In this document: piece by piece, positions 36,079 through 57,449 of the stretch | Numbering within the stretch: position 1 is the first letter of the stretch | Layout: every line of letters begins with the position of its first letter | Assembly: GCA_025174535.1 (NCBI GenBank) | Contig: JALBUN010000025.1 | Coordinates: 1 to 64,000, forward strand | Length of the DNA stretch: 64,000 nt | Source of the DNA: Cantharellus purpuraceus | Lineage: Eukaryota > Basidiomycota > Agaricomycetes > Cantharellales > Hydnaceae | Direction: 5' to 3' | Position numbers and translations under genes: made by a program | The notes under the pieces: model-generated | Told to the model about the DNA's origin: nothing | Seen by the model: the letters and a program-made list of their open reading frames with translations, nothing else | The model's database searches: none

Positions 36079-39000
36079 TCACGCCTCCTCCATGGCACCA
36101 TCAATGATGCCCTTCAGAGGCGTATCAGACACAAATGCCGAAAGCGTGATATGGATCCCCGTCCGCTCGCCAAAGTGCTCTGCGAAGCGGATAAAGTCCA
36201 TCGACTGCAGGCCGACGGCGTGCAGGGACCGCGAGAGCAGGTCGGGCGAGGGCGCGTAGCCGAATAGCTCGCCCAGTAAGTCGAGCGCCGCCGTGGCGGG
36301 GTCATCCCGCGTGCCGGAGGGGCTGTCGGCGCCGTCGGCCCGCGGGGGGTCCGTTGCACCGGGGAGCGGCGGCCGGGGTGGGGAAGGGGGCTGCCGAGGC
36401 GGCTTGCGGAGCCCGGGATGGGCCGTGCTGAGGGCGATGAGGCCCTCCTGCGGCGTGACGGCGGCGACGTCCGCCCAGCCATACCGCGCCACCATCTTTG
36501 TGAGCGCCGTGCCAGGCCCCACGTCGATGATGGTCGCCCCCGCCCCTGCGAATGTGGTGCGGACGTGCTGCATGGCGCGGAAAAAGTCGAGCGGGTCGCG
36601 CATGTGCCGCAGCCAGTACTTGATGCCGAGGCGGGCGCCGCTGAGGGGGCCGCCGGTGACGCCGGAGATGAAGCGGACGGGGGTGTCGCGCGGGGTGTAG
36701 GTGAAGGGGGCGAGGGTGATGGCGGGGGCTTCCATGAGGGCGGAGTGGAAGGGGAGGCTGGTGGGCACGGGGAGGGTTTTGATGCGGCGGCGGGTGAATT
36801 CGGCGTCGGCGGATGCGATCTGGGCGGAGGTGCCGGAGAGGACGAGGTGGGTGGGGCCGATGAGGGTGGCGATGGTGGGCGGGGAAGGGAGGGAGGCCAG
36901 GGAGCGGCGCGCCAGGGGGTGGGTGCAGAATACGTTGAGCATGGCGCCTTTGACGGTGCGGAGGACGATGGCCCGTCGGACGAGGATGTTGACGGCGGTC
37001 TCTTCGGAGAGGATGCCGGCGGTGACGGCCGCGGCGTATTCGCCGAAGCAGTAGCCCAGAACGGCCCCGGGGACGATGCCCTGCTCCGAGAGTGTCTGGA
37101 CGAGGGTGAGCTGCAACGCCAGTGTCCTGAGCTGGCGCTCAAGATCCAGACTAGGGCGAAGCGGAAGGCGTCAACGGCAGGCGCCGGCAAGGCGGGGTGT
37201 GAGACTTACTCTGGGACATGCACGGCATCTGCGAGGCTAGATCGTATCTGCTGGGCTGCCGCCATCAGCCGCGTCTCAATGGCGTTCAGTTTTGCCGTGT
37301 CGGCGGCAGCACTGGGGAGGGAGGACCAAGGGCCGAACAGAAACACAGGCGAGGGGCCCGCCGCCGCCGCTGCCCGGTGATTGCGCTTCAACGCCTCGCG
37401 TACGATCCGAGCGAGGAGCTCGGACGCGATGGGAGGACACGCCGCCAACGACGGGCTGCACGCCAACGAGTGCGACACCTGCAGCGACGCATACCGCTCG
37501 GGCATGGTCCCCTCCTCGAGGGAGCTGACAAAGTAGGGGAGGAGCGGCGTGATGGGAAGCATGCCCTTGTGGCGCTTCACACGGTCGACGTACTCGCGGA
37601 ACGGGACGAGCGCCGGCACGCCGATGCCCGCCGTCTCGCCCATGCGCTGCGCCACCTCCGCCCACGCGCCCCGGTGCGGGTTCGCCAGGTGGATCACCCG
37701 TCTGCCCCCGCCGCTCATGCGCGGGGACACGACGACGTCGCGCAGCGCGTCGGCGCACACGTCGGACGGGATCCACGTCACGTGCGGCATGGAGCGCGGG
37801 AACGCGCGCAGCGCCGGGAGGGACGCGATCATCATGGGCATCATCTCCTTCTGCGACCACGCGCCCGTCACCGTGTCGCCGCATATCTGCCCCACGCGCA
37901 CAATGTTCAGGTGGAACGCGGCGGCGGCGGCGGCGGCGTGCATGCGCAGGAGACTGTGTTCGGCGACGAGCTTGGAGATGGCGTATCCCTGGCGTGGGGT
38001 GGTCAGTGGGCGACGACGCTGTGCAGACGGATGGGAATACGGCACCTGCACGAGCGAGTCCGACACGCGCGGCTCCAGCACGTCTTCAGGGACCAGCTCC
38101 CGCCCGTAATTGAACGTGCTGGCGTACGATCCGATGTAGTGGTACCTGACCTGCTTGTCCGCCTCGACGCACAGCTCGGCGAGGGTGCGCGTGCACCGCA
38201 GAAAAGGGTGGAACTTGACGAGGGGGAGGTTAAAGTCCACGATCCACGCGGCGTGTATGACCTCGTCCACCCTCTCCACCAGCGTCGCATAGTCCCCCTC
38301 CGCCAGCCCGAGCCTCGGCCCGCACAGGTCCGTCGTCCGCAGCCCCTGCAGCGCCCCCCGCGCCCGCGCGTCGTGCAGCACCTGCACATCCAGGCCGTGT
38401 TTCGCAAACGACGCGCAGAGCCGTGTCCACGGGTCCCCGCGCACGATGCAATACACCGTGTGCGACGCCGTGGCCAGCAGACGGCGCAGCAGCTGCACAC
38501 CCAGCATCCCGTTCCCGCCCGTGAGCAGAAAATGCGTGCCCCCCCCCGCCGACACGCGCTTCTCGGCCGGCGGCACACCCAGCGGTGCCCCAAACGTATT
38601 GATGAGCTCCTCAAAGTCCTCCTGACTCACGCACGACGACGGCGGTCTCTGCGACCCCATGGCCCCTTTGCCCAGCGACGGCACGCCGGCATCGGCACCG
38701 CCCGCTAGCGCACCCACGCTGGCGTCCATCGGCGGCGTGTGCGGCGGCGTATGCGGCGGCGTCAGCGGCGCGTCCTTCCAGCACCGCTTGCGGTCAAACG
38801 GGTAAAACGGCAACCCGCGCACCACGGCGGGGTCGACGGCGCGCTTGTCGTACACCGTGTCAAACGCCAGCGTGTGCCCGCGCTCGTACAGGAGACACGC
38901 CGCCTCGAGGATGCGGCGCTCCTCCAGGAGGCACGCCAGCGGCCCCGTGCGGAAGGCGTCGTCGAACGCGTGCGGGTCGAGCTGCTCGAGGTTGAGCAGC

Positions 39001-40840
39001 CCGAGGGGGACGTCGGCGGCGGCCGCGGGCGGGACGGCGGCGCGCGTCGTGTCGTCGCTGTGGAGGTCGACGAGGCCGTCGAGCGTGTTGGTGATGAGGG
39101 CGCGGCGGTGGTGCGTGTGGTGGTCGCGCGCCAGGGCGAGTGTCGCGGCGAGGTCGCGGAGGCTGCAGTGCGTGTCGCGGGCCCAGGCGCAGACGGTGCG
39201 GATCCGGGCGCAGAGCGCGGCGGGGGACTTGGCGGAGAAGGGTAGCAGGTAGTATGGCGGGGAGTGGGGCGAGGCGAGGGACGAGGGTGACGGGGGCGAC
39301 TGCTGGGAGGCGGAAGGCGGTGGTGGGGGCTTTTCGATGATGATGCTGGCGATGGAGCCTGTAAACCCAAACGCGTTGACCTGGGCTATCAGTCGGTCGC
39401 CCGTGAGCGGCATGGGTTCCACGGGGACAATAACGGAGCCCTTGAGAAACTCCTTGTGTGGCCTGGCATGGTGCGGCGGGACCGTGTCGTGTTCAAAGCA
39501 CGACAAGACCTTCAGGATGCCTGAATAATACACGGTGAGAGACGCGGGACTGGGGGAGACGACAGGGACGGGGACGAACCGACTTGTGCGGCGGCACCGT
39601 GACAGTGCCCGAGGATGGTCTTGGAGGAGGACAATATCAAAGGATCGTCGTCGCGCGTGCCGTAGGTCGCGCGAATGCCCTCTGCCTCCAATGCATCGCC
39701 CACCGGCGTCCCAGTACCATGCGCTACACGTTGAACCACGAATGAGCGATGCGAGCACTTTGGCCACAGCAGCGACGCACCTTCGACGAGCCGGACATCC
39801 GCCGGCGTGAGGCGGGCAGCTTTGAGCAACGAGCGAGCGAGTGCGGCCTGCGCGGGGCTATTCGGCGTGATGAGCGTGCGCGTGGCGCCATTGTGTCCGC
39901 TGGCGAGCGCACGTATGATGCCCTGCACTGGGTCGCCCGCCGCGCGCGCGGCGCTGTGTCTCTTGAGGACGAAAAAGACGGCGCCTTCCTATATATGGCT
40001 GCATGTTAATTATAACCGCGCGACAGGGGGTGGGAAGGGGCGGACAGAGGGTGAGTAGCCGTCTGCGTCCGGGGAGAAGGCTGAGGAGCGGCCGCTGCGG
40101 GACGCCACACCGGCCGAAACAGCCCACCCGAACGGCGCAGCGCTAAAGTGCGTGGCGAGAGAGCCGACGATAGCCACTTCTGCACCTTCATGAAGCAGCG
40201 AGTGGATTCCTGAAAAGAACCCAAATTCAGAGGGTGCTTCGCGCATATATAGAGTATGCCACTTGCCGTCACGCAGTGCAAAGGCGCCGCTGGCACACGC
40301 ATTCGACACGGTGTTGCAAGATCCGCGCAGGTTGAACGTGTGGGCAATGTATCCGGGGACGCCGCTGGGGTCGCTGTTGGGGGCCCAGTTGGCATCAAAG
40401 GCGCTGGGCCCGTCGTCGTGCCAGCGCTTCATGTCCCACCCGTCCTCCGTGCCCACGCCCACCGACACGGACACGTTCCGCCCGCGCAGCGAGCAGGGCG
40501 GGATGCCGGCATTCTCGAGGGCCTCGTATGTGAGCTCCAGCGCGAGGCGTGTGTTGGGGCGCAGCGTTGCCGCCTCGGTGTCTGCGATGCCGAAAAAGTG
40601 CGGGTCGAATCGCTCGATGCCTTCCTCGCCCAGCCACCCCCCGCGTCCGCTGACGCGCGGCGGCGGGTCTGCGGGGCCATCAGAGGAGAAGGAGAACCCG
40701 CGTGTGGGAGGCGGCGGTGTGCTGCACAGCTCCCAGTCGCCTCGATTGAAGACGGACCAAAGTTGGTCGCTTCGCAGAACTTTGCCAGGCAGTCGACAGG
40801 CTGTACCGATGATGCAAGGCGGGTCGTCAGTCAAATCCAT
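36079..40840 (-). CDS. Iterative-type polyketide synthase with order KS - thioester reductase - AT - ACP
   Basis: Seven exons (40840-40267, 40209-40046, 39988-39781, 39723-39580, 39520-38046, 37988-37210, 37150-36079) join in phase to exactly 4,416 nt, or 1,471 residues. KS, about 6-430: IIGTACRLPG, active Cys182 in SNACASGA, HGTGT at 317-321, and His355 in KTILGHCHGAAA. A KS-to-AT linker follows (FSAKSPAALCARIR, about 460), then without an AT the post-AT motif LPFYPFDRKRCW (about 600-611). The NAD(P)-binding thioester reductase, about 690-1050, has TGGNGMLG, IGSYAS and the GYAISK Tyr/Lys pair. AT, about 1067-1350: the nucleophile motif reads GYCFG (Cys1149) instead of GHSLG, and the catalytic His region is PFHSALM. 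ACP: Ser1431 in VGLQSMD. No SAT, PT, DH, KR or ER is seen. The first intron is GC-AG. The likely product is a polyketide released reductively; its structure is unknown. The gene is divergent from an MFS exporter. Confidence 0.85.
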
Positions 40841-41231: not shown

Positions 41232-43332
41232 ATGTCCACTGAGCACGTCAACGACAGTGCCAACGGCCTCACTCCCCCTCCCAAAACCGACGACAAGCCA
41301 CTAGACTCCCTCGCAACCCTTCCCACGTTCCTCAAGGGCACGCTTCTCGTCTCCTTTTGCTTTGCGCAGTTTCTCGATGCTTTCAACAATTCCTCCCTCT
41401 TTGCTGCCATTCCACCCATCTCGGTCGCGCTCCACATTGATAACAGCAGATCCGTATGGCTTATCAGTGCCTACCAGCTCACCTTTGCCGCCCTCCTTCT
41501 CAGCGTACGTCCGTCCACCCGTTCCCACGTCCAACACCTTTCTCATTCACGTTTTCTCTAGAGCGGCCGCTTCAGCGACCTGTACAGCCCAAGTACGTGT
41601 TTCTCGTACTAGCCCATGCCACAAACTCACAGTGTTTGCGTCAAAAAAAAACAGAGTACATTTTCGTCTTGGGCATGCTCCTCATGTCCTTCACCTCCCT
41701 CGGCGCCGGCTTTGTCCGCGCCGAAATCCCGCTCATCGTCCTCCGGGCCTTTATGGGTGTCGGTCAGTCTACTTTGGCTTCGGCGGCCCCGTCGTTTCTC
41801 CGAGGCTGAATGAGTTGAACGGCTATAGGTGCCGCGCTGAACATCCCGTCGGCCATGAGCTTGATCATCCGTCTCTTCCCCAATCCGGCTAGCCAGTCTA
41901 AGGCCCTAGCCGCTTTTGCCGGGGCGGCGGCGATCGGAAACGGTATGCGCGACAATTGTTTCATCGGCACAGTGCTGGTGCTGACGCGTCCTGCCTACTA
42001 GTGCTTGGTCTGATCATCGGCGCCTTGCTAGCGTCATTCGCATCCTGGCCCTGGATTTTTTACTTTATCGCCATCTTCAGTTTCATCCTCGCCGTATCCG
42101 TGCTGGTCCTCACCCCCTCCGTTACGATAGACCACTCTGGACAAAAGTACAATCGCTTCAAGCGTCTGGATCTTCTCGGCGTGTCGTTCCTTACAAGTAC
42201 GCGTTTTTCATCTCGGGTCATTTTTTTTTGCGATTGATGTAATGCACAGTCGCGCTCATTTTGTTCGTGTTTGCGGTTACATCGGGGTCTGTCGATGGAT
42301 GGGGCACTGCCACCGTCATTGCGCCACTCGTGCTCTCCGTCTTCCTCACCGTGATCTTCTTCATCTGGGAGGCGCGTCTCCCCGAGTCGCTCGCCGCAGT
42401 GTACGTCCAGCCACCCTCCCTTCTTTCCTCCCCATGACCACACCCTCACACACACCCGTGTTCTGCCCGATCCAGTCCGCCTTCCATGTGGAAGTATGAG
42501 AATTTCTCGATTCTCATCGTGGTGGGGTTGCAGCCCTTCATGTGGTGGGCTTCTGTGCAGCTCCTCTTCTCGTGGTACTATCAACTCGTGTTTGGCTGGT
42601 CGACGATCAAGACGGCCGTGCACTTGTACGTGTGTTCAACGTCTATTTCATCGATGTACAGTTTGCTCAATCACACGTGTTTACCCTTCCTGCCGTGGTG
42701 CAGCCTCCCACTGGGCCTGGCGTCCTTCCCCGTGATGGGCCTCGCCTCCGCCCTGCAGCAAAACCTCCCGCTCAAATGGGTCATCCTGTTCGGCGAGGTC
42801 CTCGTGCTCATCGGCACGATCTTGTTCCCCTTTGCCAGCTCCACGCTCGACTTTTGGAAGTTTGCGTTTCCGGGATTTTTCATCGGTACGGCGGGGATGA
42901 CGATTGTGTTTGCTACTACCAAGTGAGTGGCGCGGTGTTCTTGTTCTCATCGATGACGGTGGCGGCTGATGCGCCTTTTTTTGTGTGTGCAGTATCGCCC
43001 TGTTCGCCATCACGCCTCCCGAAGTCTCGGGCATCGTCGGCGCGATCTTCACCTGCGCGCTCCAGCTAGGCTCCGCCGCCGGCGCGGCCATCGTGACGTC
43101 CATCCAAACGAGCGTGCAGCAGTCGCACGGGGGGCCGAACGGGTTCCAGGGGCGCGCGGCGGGGTTCTGGTTCTTGTTTGCGTTTAATGCGGTGGTGGCG
43201 GTGGGGGTGGTGGTGTTTATGCGGAATACGGTGCCGCCGTTGAAGGCGCAGAAGGTGAAGGAGGAGGCGGAGAAGGTGAAGGAGAAGGAGAAGGGTGTGG
43301 AGGCGGAGGCGGTGGGGGTCGCGGAGGCGTGA
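41232..43332 (+). CDS. MFS drug/metabolite exporter (DHA2-like, 14-helix type)
   Basis: Exon 1 (41232-41504) carries FLKGTLLVSFCFAQFLDAFN and VWLISAYQLTFAALLL. Exon 2 (41562-41592) carries SGRFSDLYSP, the loop 2-3 motif. Later exons carry YIFVLGMLLMSFTSLGAGFV, IVLRAFMGVGAALNIPSAMS, LGLIIGALLASFASWPWIFY (the antiporter-type motif C region), LDLLGVSFLT, LILFVFAVTSGSVDGWGTAT and SILIVVGLQPFMWWASVQLL. They end with PPEVSGIVGAIFTCALQLGS and a Lys/Glu-rich tail, TGA at 43330-43332. About nine short introns join in phase, one with an A-run before its acceptor (about 41650). The protein is expected in the plasma membrane, exporting small molecules by proton antiport. Its position suggests export of, or self-protection against, the PKS product. 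No lesion seen. Confidence 0.83.
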
Positions 43333-46200: not shown

Positions 46201-47624
46201 ATGACAGATGGCAGCCCTCCCGCCGGTCCCCCACATTTACCCAACCCAGAAACACCTCTCGCATTCCTTCCTCCTACTCTTGCCGGTCAATTTGAAGTCT
46301 CTCGTTATCTTCTTGTAGCTACATGCGGGGTATAATGGCTTTCCTCGCTTTTGGTCGAGATAGTTGTACTGACGATGGGTATCAGATGTTCTCATGGGAT
46401 GTCTTGACAAACCTTCGAAATGATTACAGACTATTGACCAAGTATCGCTTGAGCTTGCCCACTGTAGCTTATTTCCTCTCGAGGTGAGTTGTATAATCAC
46501 TTTTCTCAAACGCGGCGTTTGATATAGACATACTGCCCTCTTTGAAGAATTGCCGCATTTGCATATATTGTCACTAGCACTGTCTTTACAAGTATGAGAT
46601 CCAGACAACCTCGTTCAAACAAACAAATGCCAACTCACATGTCTTCACTGAATCCGCAGTTGGAGCAGTCGGAAATTGCCAAACACTGCAAGTTGCCATT
46701 GGAATCTGCTTTGCAGTGGCCGCGCCAGCCACCTCCCTGCTCTTCTTTTTCCGCGTGCGGGCTGTCTTCAACAATGACAAGTACATCGTCGCTTTATTCA
46801 CTTTCCTCTGGCTAGCAACCCTGGCGGGGTCCATCACCGTCCCCTTTGCCATCAAAGGTGCCCACATTGGGCCTACGGATCACTGTATAAACACGGGTGT
46901 CAAGCCGTTTAGCTCCACAGGCATCATCGTGTCTACGGTGAACGACACACTAGTTTTTATCTTCATTTCCTGGCGACTGCTTCAAGGCTCGACACAAGAG
47001 GAAGCCTTCCCAAAACGTATGAAATCGTTCTTCATCGGGGATGGACTTCCAGCCTTCTCGAGGGCAATGTTTCAAAGTGGGCAGGAGTACTACTTGTGAG
47101 GTTTTTCCTGAATTTGCTGGACACCGTACCAGAAATTCAGCGTAGATTGTTTTCCTCATTTCAGGATTACCGTTGGGGGCAACATCTTGACTATGGGCAT
47201 GATTCTCGCCCCCGCTTCCCTCCCCGCCGTCTTTCATGCCATGTTCACCGTTCCCAATATTGCGATCGGTAACGCCATGGCCTGTCATGTCTACCGCGAC
47301 ATTAAATTCGGCCGCATCGACACGAACACTACGTTTCACACTACAGCAAGAAGCACCCTCCCCAGGTTTAACACTCCCAAGATCAGCCAAAACCGTGCAA
47401 ACACTTATGACATCACGTCGACGGGGTTTTCTGACACCATCACGCCTGAATACGGCATTCAGATCACAAAGACAGTACATAGATCTCCCGATATGCCAAT
47501 GGCGGTGAGACTACCACCAAACAGCCAATTCCAATCTGGATTCAGGGCTGGCTCTACCGGTATGGCCGCAGTTTTAGTTAGGAGGCTCTTGGGTTGTACT
47601 GATCATTCTTTGGTAGGCATATAA
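46201..47624 (+). CDS. Seven-helix membrane protein, paralogue 1
   Basis: Exon 1 (46201-46329) encodes MTDGSPPAGPPHLPNPETPL then AFLPPTLAGQFEVSRYLLVA. A phase-0 intron leads to MFSWDVLTNLRNDYRLLTKY (46386-46483), then RIAAFAYIVTSTVFT, GNCQTLQVAIGICFAVAAPA, SLLFFFRVRAVFNNDKYIVA, LFTFLWLATLAGSITVPFAI, STVNDTLVFIFISWRLLQ and TMGMILAPASLPAVFHAMFT. A polar tail follows, with the stop at 47622-47624. The family is widespread in Agaricomycetes and resembles a seven-helix receptor in topology; its function is unknown. It is clearly paralogous to the gene at 54051 over its whole length, but its C-terminal 30 residues (after SPDMPMA) are unrelated and may reflect an altered 3' end. Confidence 0.75.
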
Positions 47625-48424: not shown

Positions 48425-50545
<2,121 letters not shown>

Positions 50546-51820
50546 TGAAGTCGATGGCTGTCGGTGCTTTGGTGCCATATTGTATCACCCAGGCGGTGTG
50601 ATGTATATGTATAAAAGTCATCTCTAGAAGTGCAAAGCCCACTGCGTGAAGACTAGTAGTGTTTTTGGATCGTTGGTTTCACTTCAGTCTCATGTTTCAG
50701 GTGGAATTTTTGATGGCAACACCAAGCATTTTCGGATGTAGGCTGTTGTGCAAGTCCCTTATGTGATGTTATTCGCATGGAGCAGATAAGTACTTATACA
50801 GCATTTTTGGAGTCAGTGTACATTAGCAAAGCTGAATTCTGTGCCTAATGATTTCAATTCCAAATGCTTGTACGCATACATACACACCGTCGGAGGAGAG
50901 TTGCACATACTTACCCTGGATCGGTTGGTCAACTTCAAGACTTCACAGCAAGTTATCATTGTAAGCCCTTTCATGGATTATCTGCCAAAATAATTTGAAC
51001 ATGGAACGGCCCACCCTCAACGTGGACGCATAGATCCACAGCTCGGCAGGATATGAGTTTTTTTTTTTTTTTGGCGCTTCCTGGAGTCCACGCCCTTTCC
51101 GTTGAACCACAGTGCTAGCAACCTTCACCTGCCATAACTGTAAATTTCAATGACTTGTTTGCTGACGACCTGACTGTAAATCGAGCCACCTAATTTACGT
51201 TGCGCACACGTTAACTCTACCTTGGTATGTAGTCTGACAGTTTCCCCTACTGCTGGAGCCAAATCCGTCTCGGAATGACAGACTATAAGATTGGAAAATG
51301 GGAACTGATGAGGGAAGATATGTACACGACTAGACAGCTGAAGAAGGGTTGGAGCTGCATATATACAGAAGGTACGTAAAAGACAGCTGATGAATTAAGG
51401 AGATGGAATGGGCTGCGTTCACAAAACAGAAGTTATCTGTCAAGTCTTGAATTAAGGAGATGGAATGGGATGCGTACACAAAACAGAAGTTATCTGTCAA
51501 GTCTTGAATTAAGGAGATGGAATGGGCTGCGTACACAAAACAAAAGTTATCTGTCAAGTTTATAAAATGATGCTGATTATAGGTGCTTTTGTTCACTATA
51601 GAAACTCAGTAGGTATGATAAGATAGAAATTCCGGGAGACGTGGAACAGGATCTGTTCATTCCAATCATAACCATGTTCGCCTACATGTACATTAATAGG
51701 TGAAAGCCTTTTAGTAAACGTCAAGAAATGCTCTGAACTCCGGTTTCGTGGCAGAAAGAACCCGAATCACCGTTAGGATATATTTAAATTGGACGTGATG
51801 ATTTGCTCCTAACTTCGCTC
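50546..51820. other. Intergenic region with 57-bp tandem repeat
   Basis: No gene supported. It contains the triplicated 57-bp unit described separately and a T-run at 51059-51072. Confidence 0.4.
51391..51561. repeat. 57-bp tandem repeat, three copies
   Basis: Each unit reads gaattaaggagatggaatgg, then gctgcgt or a close variant, acaaaacagaagttatctg and tcaagt. Copies differ at only a few bases, so the array is recent. On the minus strand one frame stays open and repeats TDNFCFVYAAHSISLIQDL three times, but without gene context. Confidence 0.85.
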
Positions 51821-53490
51821 CTAGCTTCGCGACGCTGATCAGCCAAGAGCATGAACACACAAGAGCGTGACACAGCCAACGACAACTTACAATCATCTTC
51901 GTCTATTTGTACTATCTGAATTGACAAGCCGTGTGTCTTGACAAGACGTGCGCGGAGTTCTTCGTCAACGCCCTTAATATAAGACAATTTCAGGCATGTC
52001 ACCGAGCTTGGTGCCGGATCCTCCAAATCCGACTGCACTCGTCGCTGCACAAATTCTATAAATCGAATCGTGCTGATGTACACGGATGAGATCTCAACCG
52101 TTTTGAGCTGAGGACATGCGAAGACAAAGTCTTGATTGGGATGGGATAAGGCAAGGAGCATATCATTGGGAGATCGTACTTGGTCGGCGATAATGAGGGA
52201 TTCCAGATGTTTCAAATGGTGCAACATGGGATGGACTTTCGGCCCTCTCAGAGCTGTACGGCGTAGGGCCAAATGGCGCAACCGAACGGTCCCATCCCTG
52301 CAGATAGCATCCAAGGCCCCGTTCAATATTCTCTCAGGAACCAGGGGTACATCAGTATCATGCTCAAAATCAAGATACTCGAGTGAGGGAACATAGAGGC
52401 ATGCGAGGAAACGTGTGGTCGAGGAATGCCGAAACGATTTGAGGCTGAGAGACTTGAGGCGTTCTAAAACCACTTTCGGAAGCTCCGCATGAATTGGCCC
52501 TCCAAAATCGTCCCATGATAAAGAGACCAGATTGGGAAGAGCATCAAGAAGCTTGAGGTACAACGTAATCGGACCATCTAGGATAGTGACATTGAGGTGA
52601 TGTACGCTCTGCATTGGTTTGACAATCAGGGACTTGACCGCGTCGCCAAAATAGCTGATAGTGAGTGTGCGCAGAGCAGGACAGTGAATACCACCAAATT
52701 CGCCGTCGATGCCATCCACAGTGCGGTGGAGAGCGAGGGTCTGCATCATAGGGGCATCTGTTGAAACCCCTGGAGGAAATAGAGCCGACATCTCCACGGG
52801 GGCGAAAATCTCTGCAATGAAGCAGCGGATCCGCCATAGCTCTCTATGAAGTATTGTGAGGATAGAGTATGATTCCTGCTGCTTCTGGTGGGGATACCAA
52901 AAACGGGGTCGTATAAATACGTCCAATAGGCGCGACTTTGATTTCTTGATCCATGAAGAAACAATTTCTGGAGCCGGGAGCGGGTCGTTAAGAACGAGGG
53001 TTGCCCAAACACGGGATTCATCGTCTAAAACAGCGCTCCACGTTCGGCAAACTTGTGCAAGCCGTGCACGAACCTGCTGCGGGTGCATCCCATTTTTGGA
53101 CGATATACAGGGTTGTCCTGGGCCTCCGGGTATTAATGGTGGAACGCTTTGGACGAATATTTCAGCTAGGATTTCGACAGGGAGTTTTAGAACCGGTGGG
53201 GTGACAAAGTCACCAATAACGCAGTCCTTGATAAGAGCAGCAATGTCGTCGTCTCTCAGACTAATCTCCTCCGAATGCTGCTCGATGTTGCACTCTCTGA
53301 CTGCGTTGACCTCCACGTCATCGCTTGAGATGTCCTCTTCAGTTGCCCTTTCTGACATTCCTACTGGTTGCTTTGCGGTTGCTGAACAATGCCAAGAAGG
53401 CGGGTTGCCGGCGTCTGCAGCTTGAACATAGGCGCTCCGGGATAGGCGGCGCAGCGTTGCGCGTCGAGGTAACTGATAAGTGCTACACAC
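51821..53490 (-). CDS. F-box protein with leucine-rich region
   Basis: One long exon from 53490 (an alternative start at about 53361, MSERATEEDISSDD, fits the family better) encodes an acidic N-terminus and an F-box-like motif, VLKLPVEILAEIFVQSVPPL, then RARLAQVCRTWSAVLDDES and VWATLVLND. About 350 residues of degenerate leucine-rich segments follow (PALRTLTISYFGD, LLDALPNLVSLSWDD, LERLKSLSLKSF, VPSLEYLDFEH). An intron with gtaagt at about 51893 to 51828 gives a short end (IDEDDSRS, stop 51821-51823). F-box proteins link substrates to the SCF ubiquitin ligase through Skp1, and the repeats would bind the substrate. A decayed copy lies at 56.3-57.4 kb on the other strand. Confidence 0.8.
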
Positions 53491-53782
53491 ACTCTCGCTG
53501 TAGAAATCTCTGCCAAGAAAAATTGACAGTTCTGGGTTGTCAGCCCGGCTCGCACATTGAAAACGTTACTCGCTAAGGCGGCATGTACGACTTCTCAGCT
53601 AGTAACTAATGAGCAGCGACGTCAATGTATGTCAAAGCAAGGCGACTGTTATGATACGAACACCAGACGAATCAGATCTATAAGCGAGTTGATCGTGGCG
53701 CAAAAGCGTAGAGACCGATGCTCTTTTGATGTGCCATGGGAAAGTCCGAAATCAGGCCTCCACGGCTGATGTACACCTGTAC

Positions 53783-54050: not shown

Positions 54051-55377
54051 ATGTCTGCAGGCCCTCCCCACGCCTTACCTAACCCGCAGACACCTCTGGC
54101 ATTTCTTCCCCCTACACTTGCTGGTCAATTTGAGGTTTCTATGTATCTTCATGTGGCCACTTGTGGGGTATACATTTCCTCGCTTTACGATTTATATGTC
54201 ACTGATAATTGCTGTCTCCAGATGTTCGCATGGGATCTCTTGACAAGCCTACGAGACGATTATGCTTTGTTGACCAAGTATCGTATGAGCTTGCCCACCG
54301 TTGTTTATTTCTTCTCAAGGTCTGTTATGGAATTACAGTCATAGTTTCAGACAATCTGACAGTGCCACTTTTGAAGAGCGGCCACTGCTGCTTACATTAT
54401 TACCGGCACTATCTTTACAAGTAAGAAACCTTCGCAGCTTCTTGATATCAAGCTAATGTGTTCCTTGTGTTTTTTCGAAGTTGGAGCGGTCGACAATTGC
54501 CAAGCACTGCAAGTTGCCATAGGATCCTGCTTTGCAGCGGCTGTACCGTTGACCTCGCTTCTCTTCTTCTTCCGCGTCAAGGCTGTCTTTAACAATGACA
54601 AGTACATTGTGGCTTTCTTTAGTTTCTTGTGGTTAGCGACATTGGCGGGCTCGCTCACAGTTCCCTTCGCCATCTCGGGGACTCACATTGGGCCGACTCG
54701 ACATTGTATAAATACTGGTGTCAAGCCATTCAGCTCCACGGGCGTCATCGTGGCTACGGTCAATGACACGCTGATATTCATATTCATCTCCTTCCGACTG
54801 CTTCAATCCTCGTACCAGGACTCCTTCCAGAAACGTGCCAAATCCTTCTTCCTGGGGGACGGACTTCCGGCGATCTCGAGGTCACTTATTCAAAGCGGTC
54901 AGGAGTATTATCTGTGAGGGTTCTGAGTTGTCAGTCACTAGATTGTCAGCTGATCCCTTCTTCCATCATAGGATCACTGCCGCGGGCAACATTGTAACTA
55001 TGGGTATGATTTTGTCTCCGCCATCCGTCCCCGCCGTCTTCCATGCCATGTTTACTGTTCCCAATATCGCCATCGGTAACGCCATGGCTTGTCGTGTTTA
55101 TCGTGACACCAAATTCGGGCGTATCAACTCGACCTCAACTCGTACGAGTCAGAGAAGCATACTACCTAAGGTTGCTCCACCACAGTTCAGTAACCCCGGA
55201 AGCCGCGTTCCATATAGCATGACGAGTAAAACGGACTATGCAGGGGAAAGTACCGTGACACCTGAATTTGGTGTTCACATCTCGACGAAGATTGAAAGAA
55301 CACAGGATGTTCCAATGGCAATTATGTCTGGGGTCAAGGGAGATTCCATGGACAAGGATTTCTCACCAATAGCATGA
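54051..55377 (+). CDS. Seven-helix membrane protein, paralogue 2
   Basis: Start 54051 (MSAGPPHALPNPQTPLAFLP), 45 bp after a TATA-like tatatataac (54004-54013). Exons mirror the gene at 46201 with the same intron positions: MFAWDLLTSLRDDYALLTKY, TGTIFT, GAVDNCQALQVAIGSCFAAA, LFFFRVKAVFNNDKYIVAFF, FLWLATLAGSLTVPFAISGT, STGVIVATVNDTLIFIFISF and NIVTMGMILSPPSVPAVFHA. A Ser/Thr-rich tail ends KDFSPIA, stop 55375-55377. The copies agree at well over half of residues by eye, highest in the membrane segments, so both appear under constraint. Function unknown. Confidence 0.8.
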
Positions 55378-56329
55378 CCCCTTCTTTCACTTTTGGGTAA
55401 TTAGTAATTCTTACTGCGCCGAGGAACACTCAGATAGGATAATGGATGTATTCGCCGATACCATTGTAAGCATTGGAGATGTCTTTGACTCAAAATAGCC
55501 CCAATTGTTGTATAAGTCTAGAGACTATGAGGAATAGATAGTATACTAGTGAAAATTGTCTCTGCGAGTACATACTGCAAGAATTCACTCCACAGGTGGC
55601 GACATGGAGATATCAAGTAACCTCAAACTGACATTTGGTGTGTGTGTGGGGGGGGAGAGGCAGAAATGTCGCATGTGAGAGGTGTCGCTGTGTTAGGCAA
55701 GGCGTGGGGTCGGCCAGGAGCAGCCATAACGGATTTCCCGACAGGCCCACAAATGACGTATGTTACATCACAACCCTAGGCTAGCTACGATCATGATGGC
55801 CGCCCCTATGCTCGACAAAAGTGTGGATCAAACAGAGCCGAGACATAGAACTTGGTCGCTTATATATGATCCCCTTATCATTCCCTCACATGCAGCTGAT
55901 GAGTTTTGATAAGATACGGTAGCAGATGCACAGGTGTACGGTAGGCGTGTGACTTCCTCTCGCCACTGAAAGGTTTCTGTGGTGCATGCACCACGATCGA
56001 TCGATCGGGCTTTCGCCTAGTGTCCGCATCAACATAGAAGTCGCTTGTTTATACCCTATCGTTGCTTGAGAGACTAGTACGGGTGGTGCACATGCACTGG
56101 CACATGCAGCATGGAGTACAACCGTACGGCTCGGAGCCGTCTTGATTTCAGCATGTGGGGGGAGACCGACATGCCCCTCGGTTGCGGCGATATAACTATA
56201 GTAACGAGATAAGATTAGCAATTACAGTGATCAAAGCCAGCCCGCCACCGTATGAATATCAATGGACGCCGGCAACCTTATGTAACACGTAATTATTCAG
56301 CGCAGCAACCTTGTCTGAAAAAGCACTTA
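55378..56329. other. Intergenic region
   Basis: No supported gene. A (gt)n-g run occurs at about 55640-55658. Confidence 0.4.
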
Positions 56330-57449
56330 AACATGGTAGCTCAGTTCTTGCAATTATACAAAAATATGACGATGTTGCATGCTGCTGCAACGGTCTTCAA
56401 AGCCCATGCTATTGAGAACTCGGTTGAACGCTTAGCGGTGATCTTTGTTCAGTGCATTCCGGTATTGATACCGGAGACCGAGGACAAGTATGTACTGTTC
56501 AAACATGGGTTTCACCCGCAACAAGCTCGTGCTCGTCTTGTACAAGCTTTCCGAACGTGGAGCACTATTTTAAATGATGAGTCCGTACTTGGGTGACGCT
56601 GGTTCTTGAAGAACCGCTCCCGGCTCCAGGCATTTTTTTTATGGATTAACAGATCAAAGTTACGCCCATTGGACGTATATATTGAACCCCATGGTTGGTA
56701 CCCCACCAGAAGCGGCTAGTTGGTCTAATATACGATGCCCTCATGATGCAGACCCTCAGTTTCCTCAACGAGCGCGGTGACGACAATTTCTTGGCTGGAT
56801 ATTTATGTATCGACGTCGAACTGCTTGATGCTCTTCCCAATCCGGTCTCTTTGTCATTGATTCACTTCAGATGCATCAAATCTTCTTTACATCCATCAAG
56901 TAGCTCCCTATAATTGGGGGCAGTGGCACCGCTTTTCTTGCATACCGCTATATTTCCTCGCTCAAATACTTTGATCTGGATTACAGCTACTCTCAATTAA
57001 ACGACAAACTGACAATTTTTTTGGGATAGTCCAGGTACGCTGTTTGACTCTACGTCGCAGAGCACTGAGGGGGGCACAGATCTATCCTATCTTTCAAGCA
57101 TCTTGAAACTCTAATTCGAGTAAATCAAACCGGCTACTCGTTGCTCTATCGCCTCAGAATGAGGACTTCAGCCCTGTATGTCCCCGGCTGGAAACGGTGA
57201 AGCTCTCAGAGGTGTAGATCTCGCTTATTGCAGCGGCGAGTGCAGTCAGGTTTGGATGATCTGACACCAGGCTTGGCGACTTGTCTGAAACTGTCAAATA
57301 TCTCTGGTATTGAGGAGGAACTGTGCGCACACATTTCTAAAATGTACCGGTCATCAATTCAAGTAGTGAAAATAATTGTAAGTCGGTTTGTGTCTATGCT
57401 CTTGGCTGACCAGTGTTGTGAAGCTGGAAATGAGTCGCCTAGCTTGTAA
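56330..57449 (+). pseudogene. Decayed copy of the neighbouring F-box gene
   Basis: On the plus strand, pieces align with the gene at 51.8-53.5 kb in the same order. They include LAVIFVQCIPVLIPE-like sequence, then HGFHPQQARARLVQAFRTWS and TILNDES followed by a stop where the intact gene has VWATL. ALMMQTLSFLNE, LLDALPNPVSLSL, and VQRRVQSGLDDLTPGLATCL then KLSNISGIEEELCAHISK also match, as does the 3' intron start gtaagt. Multiple stops, frameshifts and missing segments show that it is dead. Confidence 0.75.

What the first reader, a model, noticed from the sequence alone, without database searches (positions are those of the whole stretch)
36079..40840. Polyketide synthase with a reductase domain placed between KS and AT
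The seven-exon model is frame-perfect (4,416 nt) and gives KS - thioester reductase - AT - ACP. In usual fungal PKSs the AT directly follows the KS, and a thioester reductase, if present, is C-terminal after the ACP. Here the reductase would have to receive the acyl chain from an ACP about 380 residues downstream. There is no PT, DH, KR or ER, so the enzyme would make a short unreduced chain or load-and-reduce a preformed acyl group. I do not recall this order as a described class.
Basis: partly seen in the sequence, partly recalled or inferred. Interest (0 to 1): 0.9.

Follow-up and report, generated by a model that had tools for sequence, protein, structure and literature searches.

The report
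Mushroom polyketide synthase with shuffled domains
This mushroom gene encodes a small-molecule-building enzyme whose loading part (AT) has left its usual place and sits near the end, behind a reductase; relatives in four orders of mushroom-forming fungi share the layout, so it is a real and little-studied enzyme family rather than a prediction error.

Summary
It is not a lone oddity: 16 database proteins from four Agaricomycete orders form a family with it. A post-AT linker follows the KS linker domain with no AT before it (98.3%, E 1.6e-14, controls below 1%): the scar of a lost AT. Eight of 17 members keep an ACP before the TR; the nine without it, the window included, lie on one side of a branch, so the odd reductase placement most likely arose by losing that ACP. 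The TR is closest to fungal carboxylate-reductase R domains. The AT nucleophile is Cys in 15 of 17, with the malonyl-type Arg kept. In two lineages the KS decayed while TR and AT did not speed up. Most likely: an iterative PKS releasing a short unreduced chain as aldehyde. One 2025 genome paper lists KS-ACP-TE-AT in passing; my searches found no functional study. New variant of a known kind.

The parts
36079..40840 (-). Whole PKS gene, seven exons 40840-40267, 40209-40046, 39988-39781, 39723-39580, 39520-38046, 37988-37210, 37150-36079 (1,471 aa)
   Evidence: intron 1 is GC-AG, the other five GT-AG
39471..40816 (-). Ketosynthase (aa 9-380), Cys182, His317, His355; four introns lie inside
   Evidence: Pfam; catalytic residues
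39060..39449 (-). KS-associated linker domain (aa 388-517) that normally leads into the AT
   Evidence: PF16197 just above its cut-off, CurL-like_PKS_C just below its own
38775..38912 (-). Post-AT linker (aa 567-612, LPFYPFDRKRCW) with no AT before it: scar of the lost canonical AT
   Evidence: hhalign 98.3%, E 1.6e-14; next family region, region after the AT and five column shuffles all below 1%
37398..38549 (-). Thioester reductase (aa 688-1052), TGGNGMLG, Ser828, Tyr857, Lys861; contains intron 38045-37989
   Evidence: one search prints residue 829; Ser828 is the one before it
36454..37358 (-). Displaced acyltransferase (aa 1066-1347), nucleophile Cys1149 (GYCFGE), Arg1174, His1250; contains intron 37209-37151
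36109..36303 (-). Acyl carrier protein (aa 1398-1462), Ser1431
   Evidence: (weak); fold in homolog P0004
41232..43332 (+). MFS transporter, divergent neighbour (possible cluster member; ends taken by eye)
   Evidence: MFS_1 3.8e-20 on joined exon pieces
48425..50545 (+). Flavin-dependent halogenase-like gene (WSWLIP motif), possible cluster member; ends by eye
   Evidence: Trp_halogenase 4e-6; sequence; motif

Best explanation
The gene is a real member of an Agaricomycete family of iterative type I PKSs in which the AT was lost from between the KS linker domain and the post-AT linker, and an AT-ACP pair lies at the C-terminus behind a carboxylic-acid-reductase-like TR. It is the only copy seen among the own-genome KS, TR and AT matches. 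Likely working: AT (Cys1149) takes malonyl from CoA and loads ACP Ser1431; KS (Cys182) condenses one or a few units; the ACP, on a Pro-rich tether, swings back to the TR, which uses NAD(P)H to release an unreduced short chain as aldehyde (or alcohol). Shown: order, catalytic residues, family, linker scar, single origin of the ACP1 difference. Inferred: every catalytic step, malonyl as extender, ACP-to-TR transfer in cis, and the product.
For: Frame-perfect model; domains; 16 homologs, order mapped per protein; post-AT linker scar with controls; family KS, TR and AT each one clade in quick trees; ACP1 presence needs one change on both family trees. KS Cys/His/His intact in the window and in 12 of 14 members with a KS; AT Arg in 17 of 17, AT His in 16 of 16 with the column; TR Tyr and Lys in 17 of 17; ACP Ser in 16 of 16 with the column. 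AlphaFold of homolog P0004: confident TR, AT and ACP with disordered linkers; Foldseek best hit 8aep, the R domain of Neurospora carboxylate reductase, then PKS R domains and PKS ATs. No other own-genome locus among those fetched by then matched the window's KS, TR or AT above 40%.
Against: No transcript, enzyme or product data. Two members have lost KS catalytic residues and three annotated members lack a KS, so condensation may not be the core function. The AT nucleophile is Cys, not Ser, and the usual GQGSQ motif is replaced by FGPW or close to it, so malonyl loading is not assured. The ACP match is below Pfam's cut-off, and the NCBIfam matches shown are below their cut-offs.
Confidence: 0.6

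Rival explanations
1. TR-AT-ACP is a self-contained acyl-CoA-fed reductase: the AT loads an acyl group from CoA onto the ACP and the TR reduces it, so that the enzyme works like a carboxylic acid reductase without ATP; the KS is optional or vestigial.
For: KS catalytic residues lost and KS evolution accelerated in two lineages (P0003: 94 vs 15 changes, p 4e-14; P0127: 83 vs 21, p 1e-9, window as outgroup; six of six KS tests p < 1e-7) while TR and AT are not accelerated (11 of 12 tests p > 0.4, one p 0.025 in the opposite direction). P0004, P0010 and P0011 are annotated without a KS.
Against: The KS is intact in 12 of 14 members that have one and is the domain most identical to the window in 11 of 13. 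The malonyl-type Arg is kept in 17 of 17, which suits a PKS extender AT better than a general acyl loader. The three KS-less entries may be truncated gene models.
Confidence: 0.22
2. The megasynthase works in trans: its TR or KS serves an ACP of another enzyme, or its AT-ACP loads a partner (for example the own-genome C7 PKS).
For: The C7 PKS KS is the nearest outgroup to the family KS; by my reading its AT lacks the nucleophile and the His, and its frame stops after the post-AT linker.
Against: The window protein has its own AT and ACP; C7 and C25 are separate contigs; no docking evidence; an ACP in a further C7 exon was not excluded.
Confidence: 0.08
3. Gene-model artefact: two adjacent genes (KS-TR and AT-ACP) or an assembly joint.
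For: No RNA evidence; gene GC 68% against about 50% in the flanks.
Against: Same order in single annotated proteins of other species; an intron lies inside the AT as bounded by homologs; GC is high throughout the gene (57.5-77.5% in the 200-base bins wholly inside it).
Confidence: 0.03

Closest known systems
IgPKS3 of Inonotus glomeratus (PMC12634532, passages read) and the Hymenochaetales relatives found here (P0008 Fomitiporia, P0009 Sanghuangporus)
   Same: KS-ACP-X-AT order; the paper reports transcript levels in different media
   Different: Keeps ACP1; the paper labels the third domain TE and the passages do not remark on the order. That IgPKS3 belongs to this family is inferred from order and taxon; its sequence was not seen
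Fungal PKSs with C-terminal thioester reductase (contig C5 of the same genome: four KS and AT loci, NAD_binding_4 matches beside three of them; one copy, L024, examined)
   Same: KS, AT and a TR in one locus
   Different: L024 order is KS-AT...-TR with the TR last and a KR-like GGLGGLG motif before it by my reading
Fungal A-T-R carboxylic/aryl acid reductases (8aep R domain; P0196, P0205 and others)
   Same: The family TR falls with 11 of the 14 named fungal reductases in one half of the TR tree and 8aep is closest in sequence and, for homolog P0004, in fold
   Different: They activate with an adenylation domain and have no KS or AT; the family ACP1 profile's 14 best outside hits include none of them
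Bacterial KS-AT-ACP-TR synthases (P0013, P0017, P0199)
   Same: Same domain set (P0013 and P0017 mapped; P0199 from its Pfam list)
   Different: Order KS-AT-TR in the two mapped; their KS, and for P0013 and P0199 the TR, fall outside the family clades
AT-less (trans-AT) bacterial PKS modules, e.g. 7zma as best solved match of the KS region (its trans-AT nature is recalled)
   Same: KS followed by linker and post-AT-linker remnant without an AT between (recalled for trans-AT modules)
   Different: Here an AT is present in cis, downstream of the TR

Membership tests
Iterative type I fungal PKS | KS with Cys-His-His | tested here: met
Iterative type I fungal PKS | AT directly after the KS linker domain | tested here: not met
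   AT is at aa 1066-1347, KS-to-post-AT-linker spacing 245 aa against a median of 521 in 78 AT-bearing PKSs (range 187-579)
Iterative type I fungal PKS | carrier protein with attachment Ser | tested here: met
   Pfam score below cut-off
Non-reducing PKS | PT domain (and usually SAT) | tested here: not met
   no such match
Highly reducing PKS | DH, KR, ER | tested here: not met
   no such match
Thioester reductase (R) domain | Rossmann GxxGxxG and Ser/Thr-Tyr-Lys, R-domain fold | tested here: met
   homolog fold. Ser/Thr column first chosen holds Ser/Thr in 13 of 17; the column that the alignment to 4u7w points to holds it in 17 of 17 by my reading
Carboxylic acid reductase (A-T-R) | adenylation domain | tested here: not met
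   no such match
Malonyl-type AT | Ser nucleophile GHSxG | tested here: not met
   Cys in GYCFGE; Cys in 15 of 17 members
Malonyl-type AT | Arg for the malonyl carboxylate and His in an FH motif | tested here: met
   Arg 17 of 17, His 16 of 16 with the column; meaning recalled from FabD/MAT work
SAT domain | Cys nucleophile, N-terminal position | tested here: inconclusive
   Cys present, but position and Arg differ; sequence matches malonyl-type and PKS ATs
KS-TR-AT-ACP family described here | post-AT linker before the TR, AT after the TR | tested here: met

The most novel reading that the evidence does not exclude
The family is a distinct enzyme class built around a TR-AT-ACP core: a CoA-fed, self-loading thioester reductase with a Cys-nucleophile AT, onto which a KS with an excised AT was fused and from which KS activity has been lost again at least twice. 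The displaced AT would then load the reductase's ACP rather than serve as an ordinary extender AT.
Probability: 0.2. Interest if true: 0.8.

Novelty: new variant of a known kind. Interest (0 to 1): 0.62.

Why it matters
Fungal type I PKSs are usually taken to have a fixed KS-AT core. A family spread over four Agaricomycete orders in which the AT was cut out, leaving its post-AT linker, and sits behind a reductase shows that this core can be rearranged within one chain. It offers a natural test of whether AT position matters, of a Cys-nucleophile extender AT, and of whether a reductase-AT-ACP unit can work without condensation. The likely aldehyde product is unknown.

Tried and rejected
Intron 1 as GT-AG: rejected for the GC-AG donor because homologs fill the two-residue gap. 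Origin of ACP1 from the T domain of A-T-R enzymes: not supported, the ACP1 profile's 14 best non-family hits include none of the A-T-R proteins I had marked. Bacterial origin of the KS: not supported, the nearest outgroup is the own-genome C7 fungal PKS (quick tree, few fungal references). Origin of the AT: unresolved; it sits on a long branch among bacterial ATs, apart from the other fungal ATs included. Codon-bias gene finding in the flanks gave little, because the PKS used to train it is far more GC-rich than its surroundings. The first post-AT-linker script found no references because my distance limits were wrong, and hhalign then failed; rerun. Searching an alignment of three partial members gave no new fungal-named protein with both TR and AT among 120 listed of 205. 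Literature: (43 and 44 returned no paper); only PMC12634532 (passages) held a matching order string. PMC8582187 and PMC10608310 were seen in passages, which had nothing on it; the remaining papers were seen in listings only. The library is open-access PMC, so subscription papers on basidiomycete PKSs were not checked. P0013 and P0017 are bacterial comparison rows, not counted in the family. Rows dropped: P0127 was left out of the KS tree; P0004, P0010 and P0011 have no KS and are not in the KS trees; non-family rows with alignments of 330 columns or fewer were left out.
Full report
What was checked. My first attempt with a GT donor in intron 1 lost six bases; all 13 homologs with a KS carry the two missing residues, so intron 1 is GC-AG. 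Pfam gives KS, KS-associated linker, NAD_binding_4 reductase, acyltransferase and, below its cut-off (E 0.01), an ACP, in that order, and no PT, DH, KR or ER. NCBIfam points the same way for KS, thioester reductase and AT, with the listed scores below the curated cut-offs.

A family, not a singleton. Protein searches gave 16 database proteins that share the TR-AT order: 11 of the 81 hits and five more among the 120 listed of 1,079 (P0083, P0084, P0085, P0086, P0127); one search added no fungal-named protein with both domains among 120 listed of 205. They come from Collybia, Amanita (two), Pleurotus (three entries), Cyclocybe, Lentinula, Mycena, Peniophora, Dentipellis, Fomitiporia, Sanghuangporus, Heliocybe and Gloeophyllum (two) by the names given; one genus or species from each of four Agaricomycete orders was looked up (Gloeophyllales, Russulales, Hymenochaetales, Agaricales), the rest are recalled. 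Domain mapping shows KS - linker - (ACP1) - TR - AT - ACP2 in those that are complete. P0004, P0010 and P0011 lack a KS as annotated, P0011 also lacks ACP2, P0005 lacks the KS-associated linker, and no ACP2 alignment was found for P0010, although a Ser aligns.

The scar of the lost AT. After the KS linker domain, residues 567-612 match the post-AT linker that in ordinary PKSs follows the AT (LPFYPFDRKRCW against the LPTYPFQRxRYW consensus). Profile comparison of the family region with this region from AT-bearing PKSs (first 80 of the 134 found) gives 98.3% probability, E 1.6e-14; the next family region, the region after the family AT and five column shuffles all stay below 1%. The distance from the second KS His motif to this linker is 209-245 residues in 10 of 11 family rows measured (P0005 81, a short model; 11 of the 14 members with a KS matched the pattern) against a median of 521 in 78 AT-bearing PKSs (range 187-579). 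So the AT was lost from its normal place and an AT is present instead behind the TR.

Why a reductase has no ACP in front of it. Eight of 17 members have an ACP between the post-AT linker and the TR, the standard ACP-TR order; nine, including the window, do not. On careful trees of TR+AT (17 rows) and of the KS (14 rows), ACP1 presence needs a single change (support 100/98 and 99/99). In the wider KS tree (quick method), where the own-genome C7 PKS is the nearest outgroup, the seven ACP1-less rows included form a clade (99) inside the ACP1-bearing ones (nesting support 91), so one loss of ACP1 is the simplest history. The window form therefore has only the C-terminal ACP to feed the TR in cis. 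AlphaFold of the homolog P0004 (mean pLDDT 79, pTM 0.51) gives confident TR (about 139-531), AT (548-825) and ACP (864-940) with a low-confidence AT-ACP tether, which permits but does not show such a visit. A second model, of P0010 (mean pLDDT 77, pTM 0.46), covers the KS linker domain, ACP1, TR and AT.

Parts and their kin. In a quick tree the family TR lies in one half (support 100) with 11 of the 14 named fungal adenylation-reductase or aminoadipate-reductase proteins and six unnamed rows; the other three named fungal rows, two aminoadipate reductases among them, lie in the other half with the bacterial rows. 8aep, the R domain of the Neurospora carboxylate reductase, is the best match by sequence and, for P0004, by fold. 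The KS clade is sister to an own-genome PKS that I read as AMP-ACP-KS-AT (no family scan was run on it). The AT falls apart from the other fungal ATs included, on a long branch, origin open. The ACP1 profile finds PKS-type ACPs first.

Catalytic state. KS Cys/His/His are intact in 12 of 14 members with a KS, the window included. TR Tyr and Lys are in 17 of 17. The Ser/Thr column I first chose (830 in the 1,469-aa numbering) holds Ser/Thr in only 13 of 17; the alignment to 4u7w points four residues earlier, to a column with Ser/Thr in 17 of 17 by my reading. The AT nucleophile is Cys in 15 of 17 (Ser in P0011 and P0084); Arg is in 17 of 17, His in 16 of 16 with the column; the usual N-terminal GQGSQ is replaced by a family motif FGPW or close to it. 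That Arg and FH mark malonyl-type ATs, and Cys marks SAT domains, is recalled knowledge.

Results against a plain PKS reading. P0003 and P0127 lost KS catalytic residues. Relative-rate tests show their KS changing much faster than in sister species (94 vs 15 and 83 vs 21 with the window as outgroup; six of six tests p < 1e-7), while TR and AT do not (11 of 12 tests p > 0.4, one p 0.025 with the sister faster). The two species were picked because they had lost residues, so the KS result is not an independent test; the contrast with TR and AT is the informative part. It suggests that the TR-AT part is kept without condensation in those lineages.

Mechanism. Best supported: AT loads malonyl on the ACP, the KS condenses, the TR releases an unreduced short chain as aldehyde. 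All catalytic steps are inferred. An MFS transporter (41232-43332) and a flavin-dependent halogenase-like gene (48425-50545) lie on one side; whether they act with the PKS is not known.

Known or new. Order strings were searched in open-access papers, locus tags of relatives and wider terms. One paper, PMC12634532 (passages read), lists IgPKS3 of Inonotus glomeratus as KS-ACP-TE-AT, similar to genes of I. hispidus and I. obliquus, with expression data and, in the passages seen, no comment on the order. The ACP1-less form was not found in print in these searches. Verdict: a real, conserved rearrangement of a known enzyme kind.

Noticed in passing
window 36079-40840: The PKS gene is 68% GC (CDS GC3 85%) with sharp edges, in a window of 49.5% GC; the other own-genome PKS loci fetched are 49-57%. 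Unexplained.
   Followed up: partly
G000:C5, L019-L022: Four nearly identical PKS loci on contig C5 (AT branch lengths 0.0025-0.013), suggesting recent amplification; the one examined further (L024) reads KS-AT...-TR.
   Followed up: partly
L026 (G000:C7:1-8000), 6467-1345 minus strand: By my reading an AMP-ACP-KS-AT PKS whose AT motif is GGEGMTEY with no Ser nucleophile, and whose frame stops after the post-AT linker; a further exon was not excluded. Its KS is nearest to the family.
   Followed up: partly
window 48425-50545 (+): Flavin-dependent halogenase-like gene with WSWLIP about 7.6 kb from the PKS start.
   Followed up: partly
window 46578-47624 and 54375-55377 (+); 51784-53565 (-) and 56231-56596 (+): By eye, two copies of similar membrane-protein reading frames, and an F-box-like frame with a similar fragment nearby: probably a local duplication.
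   Followed up: no
P0003 (Pleurotus pulmonarius), P0127 (Amanita inopinata): KS decayed and fast-evolving in family members whose TR Tyr/Lys and AT residues are intact.
   Followed up: yes
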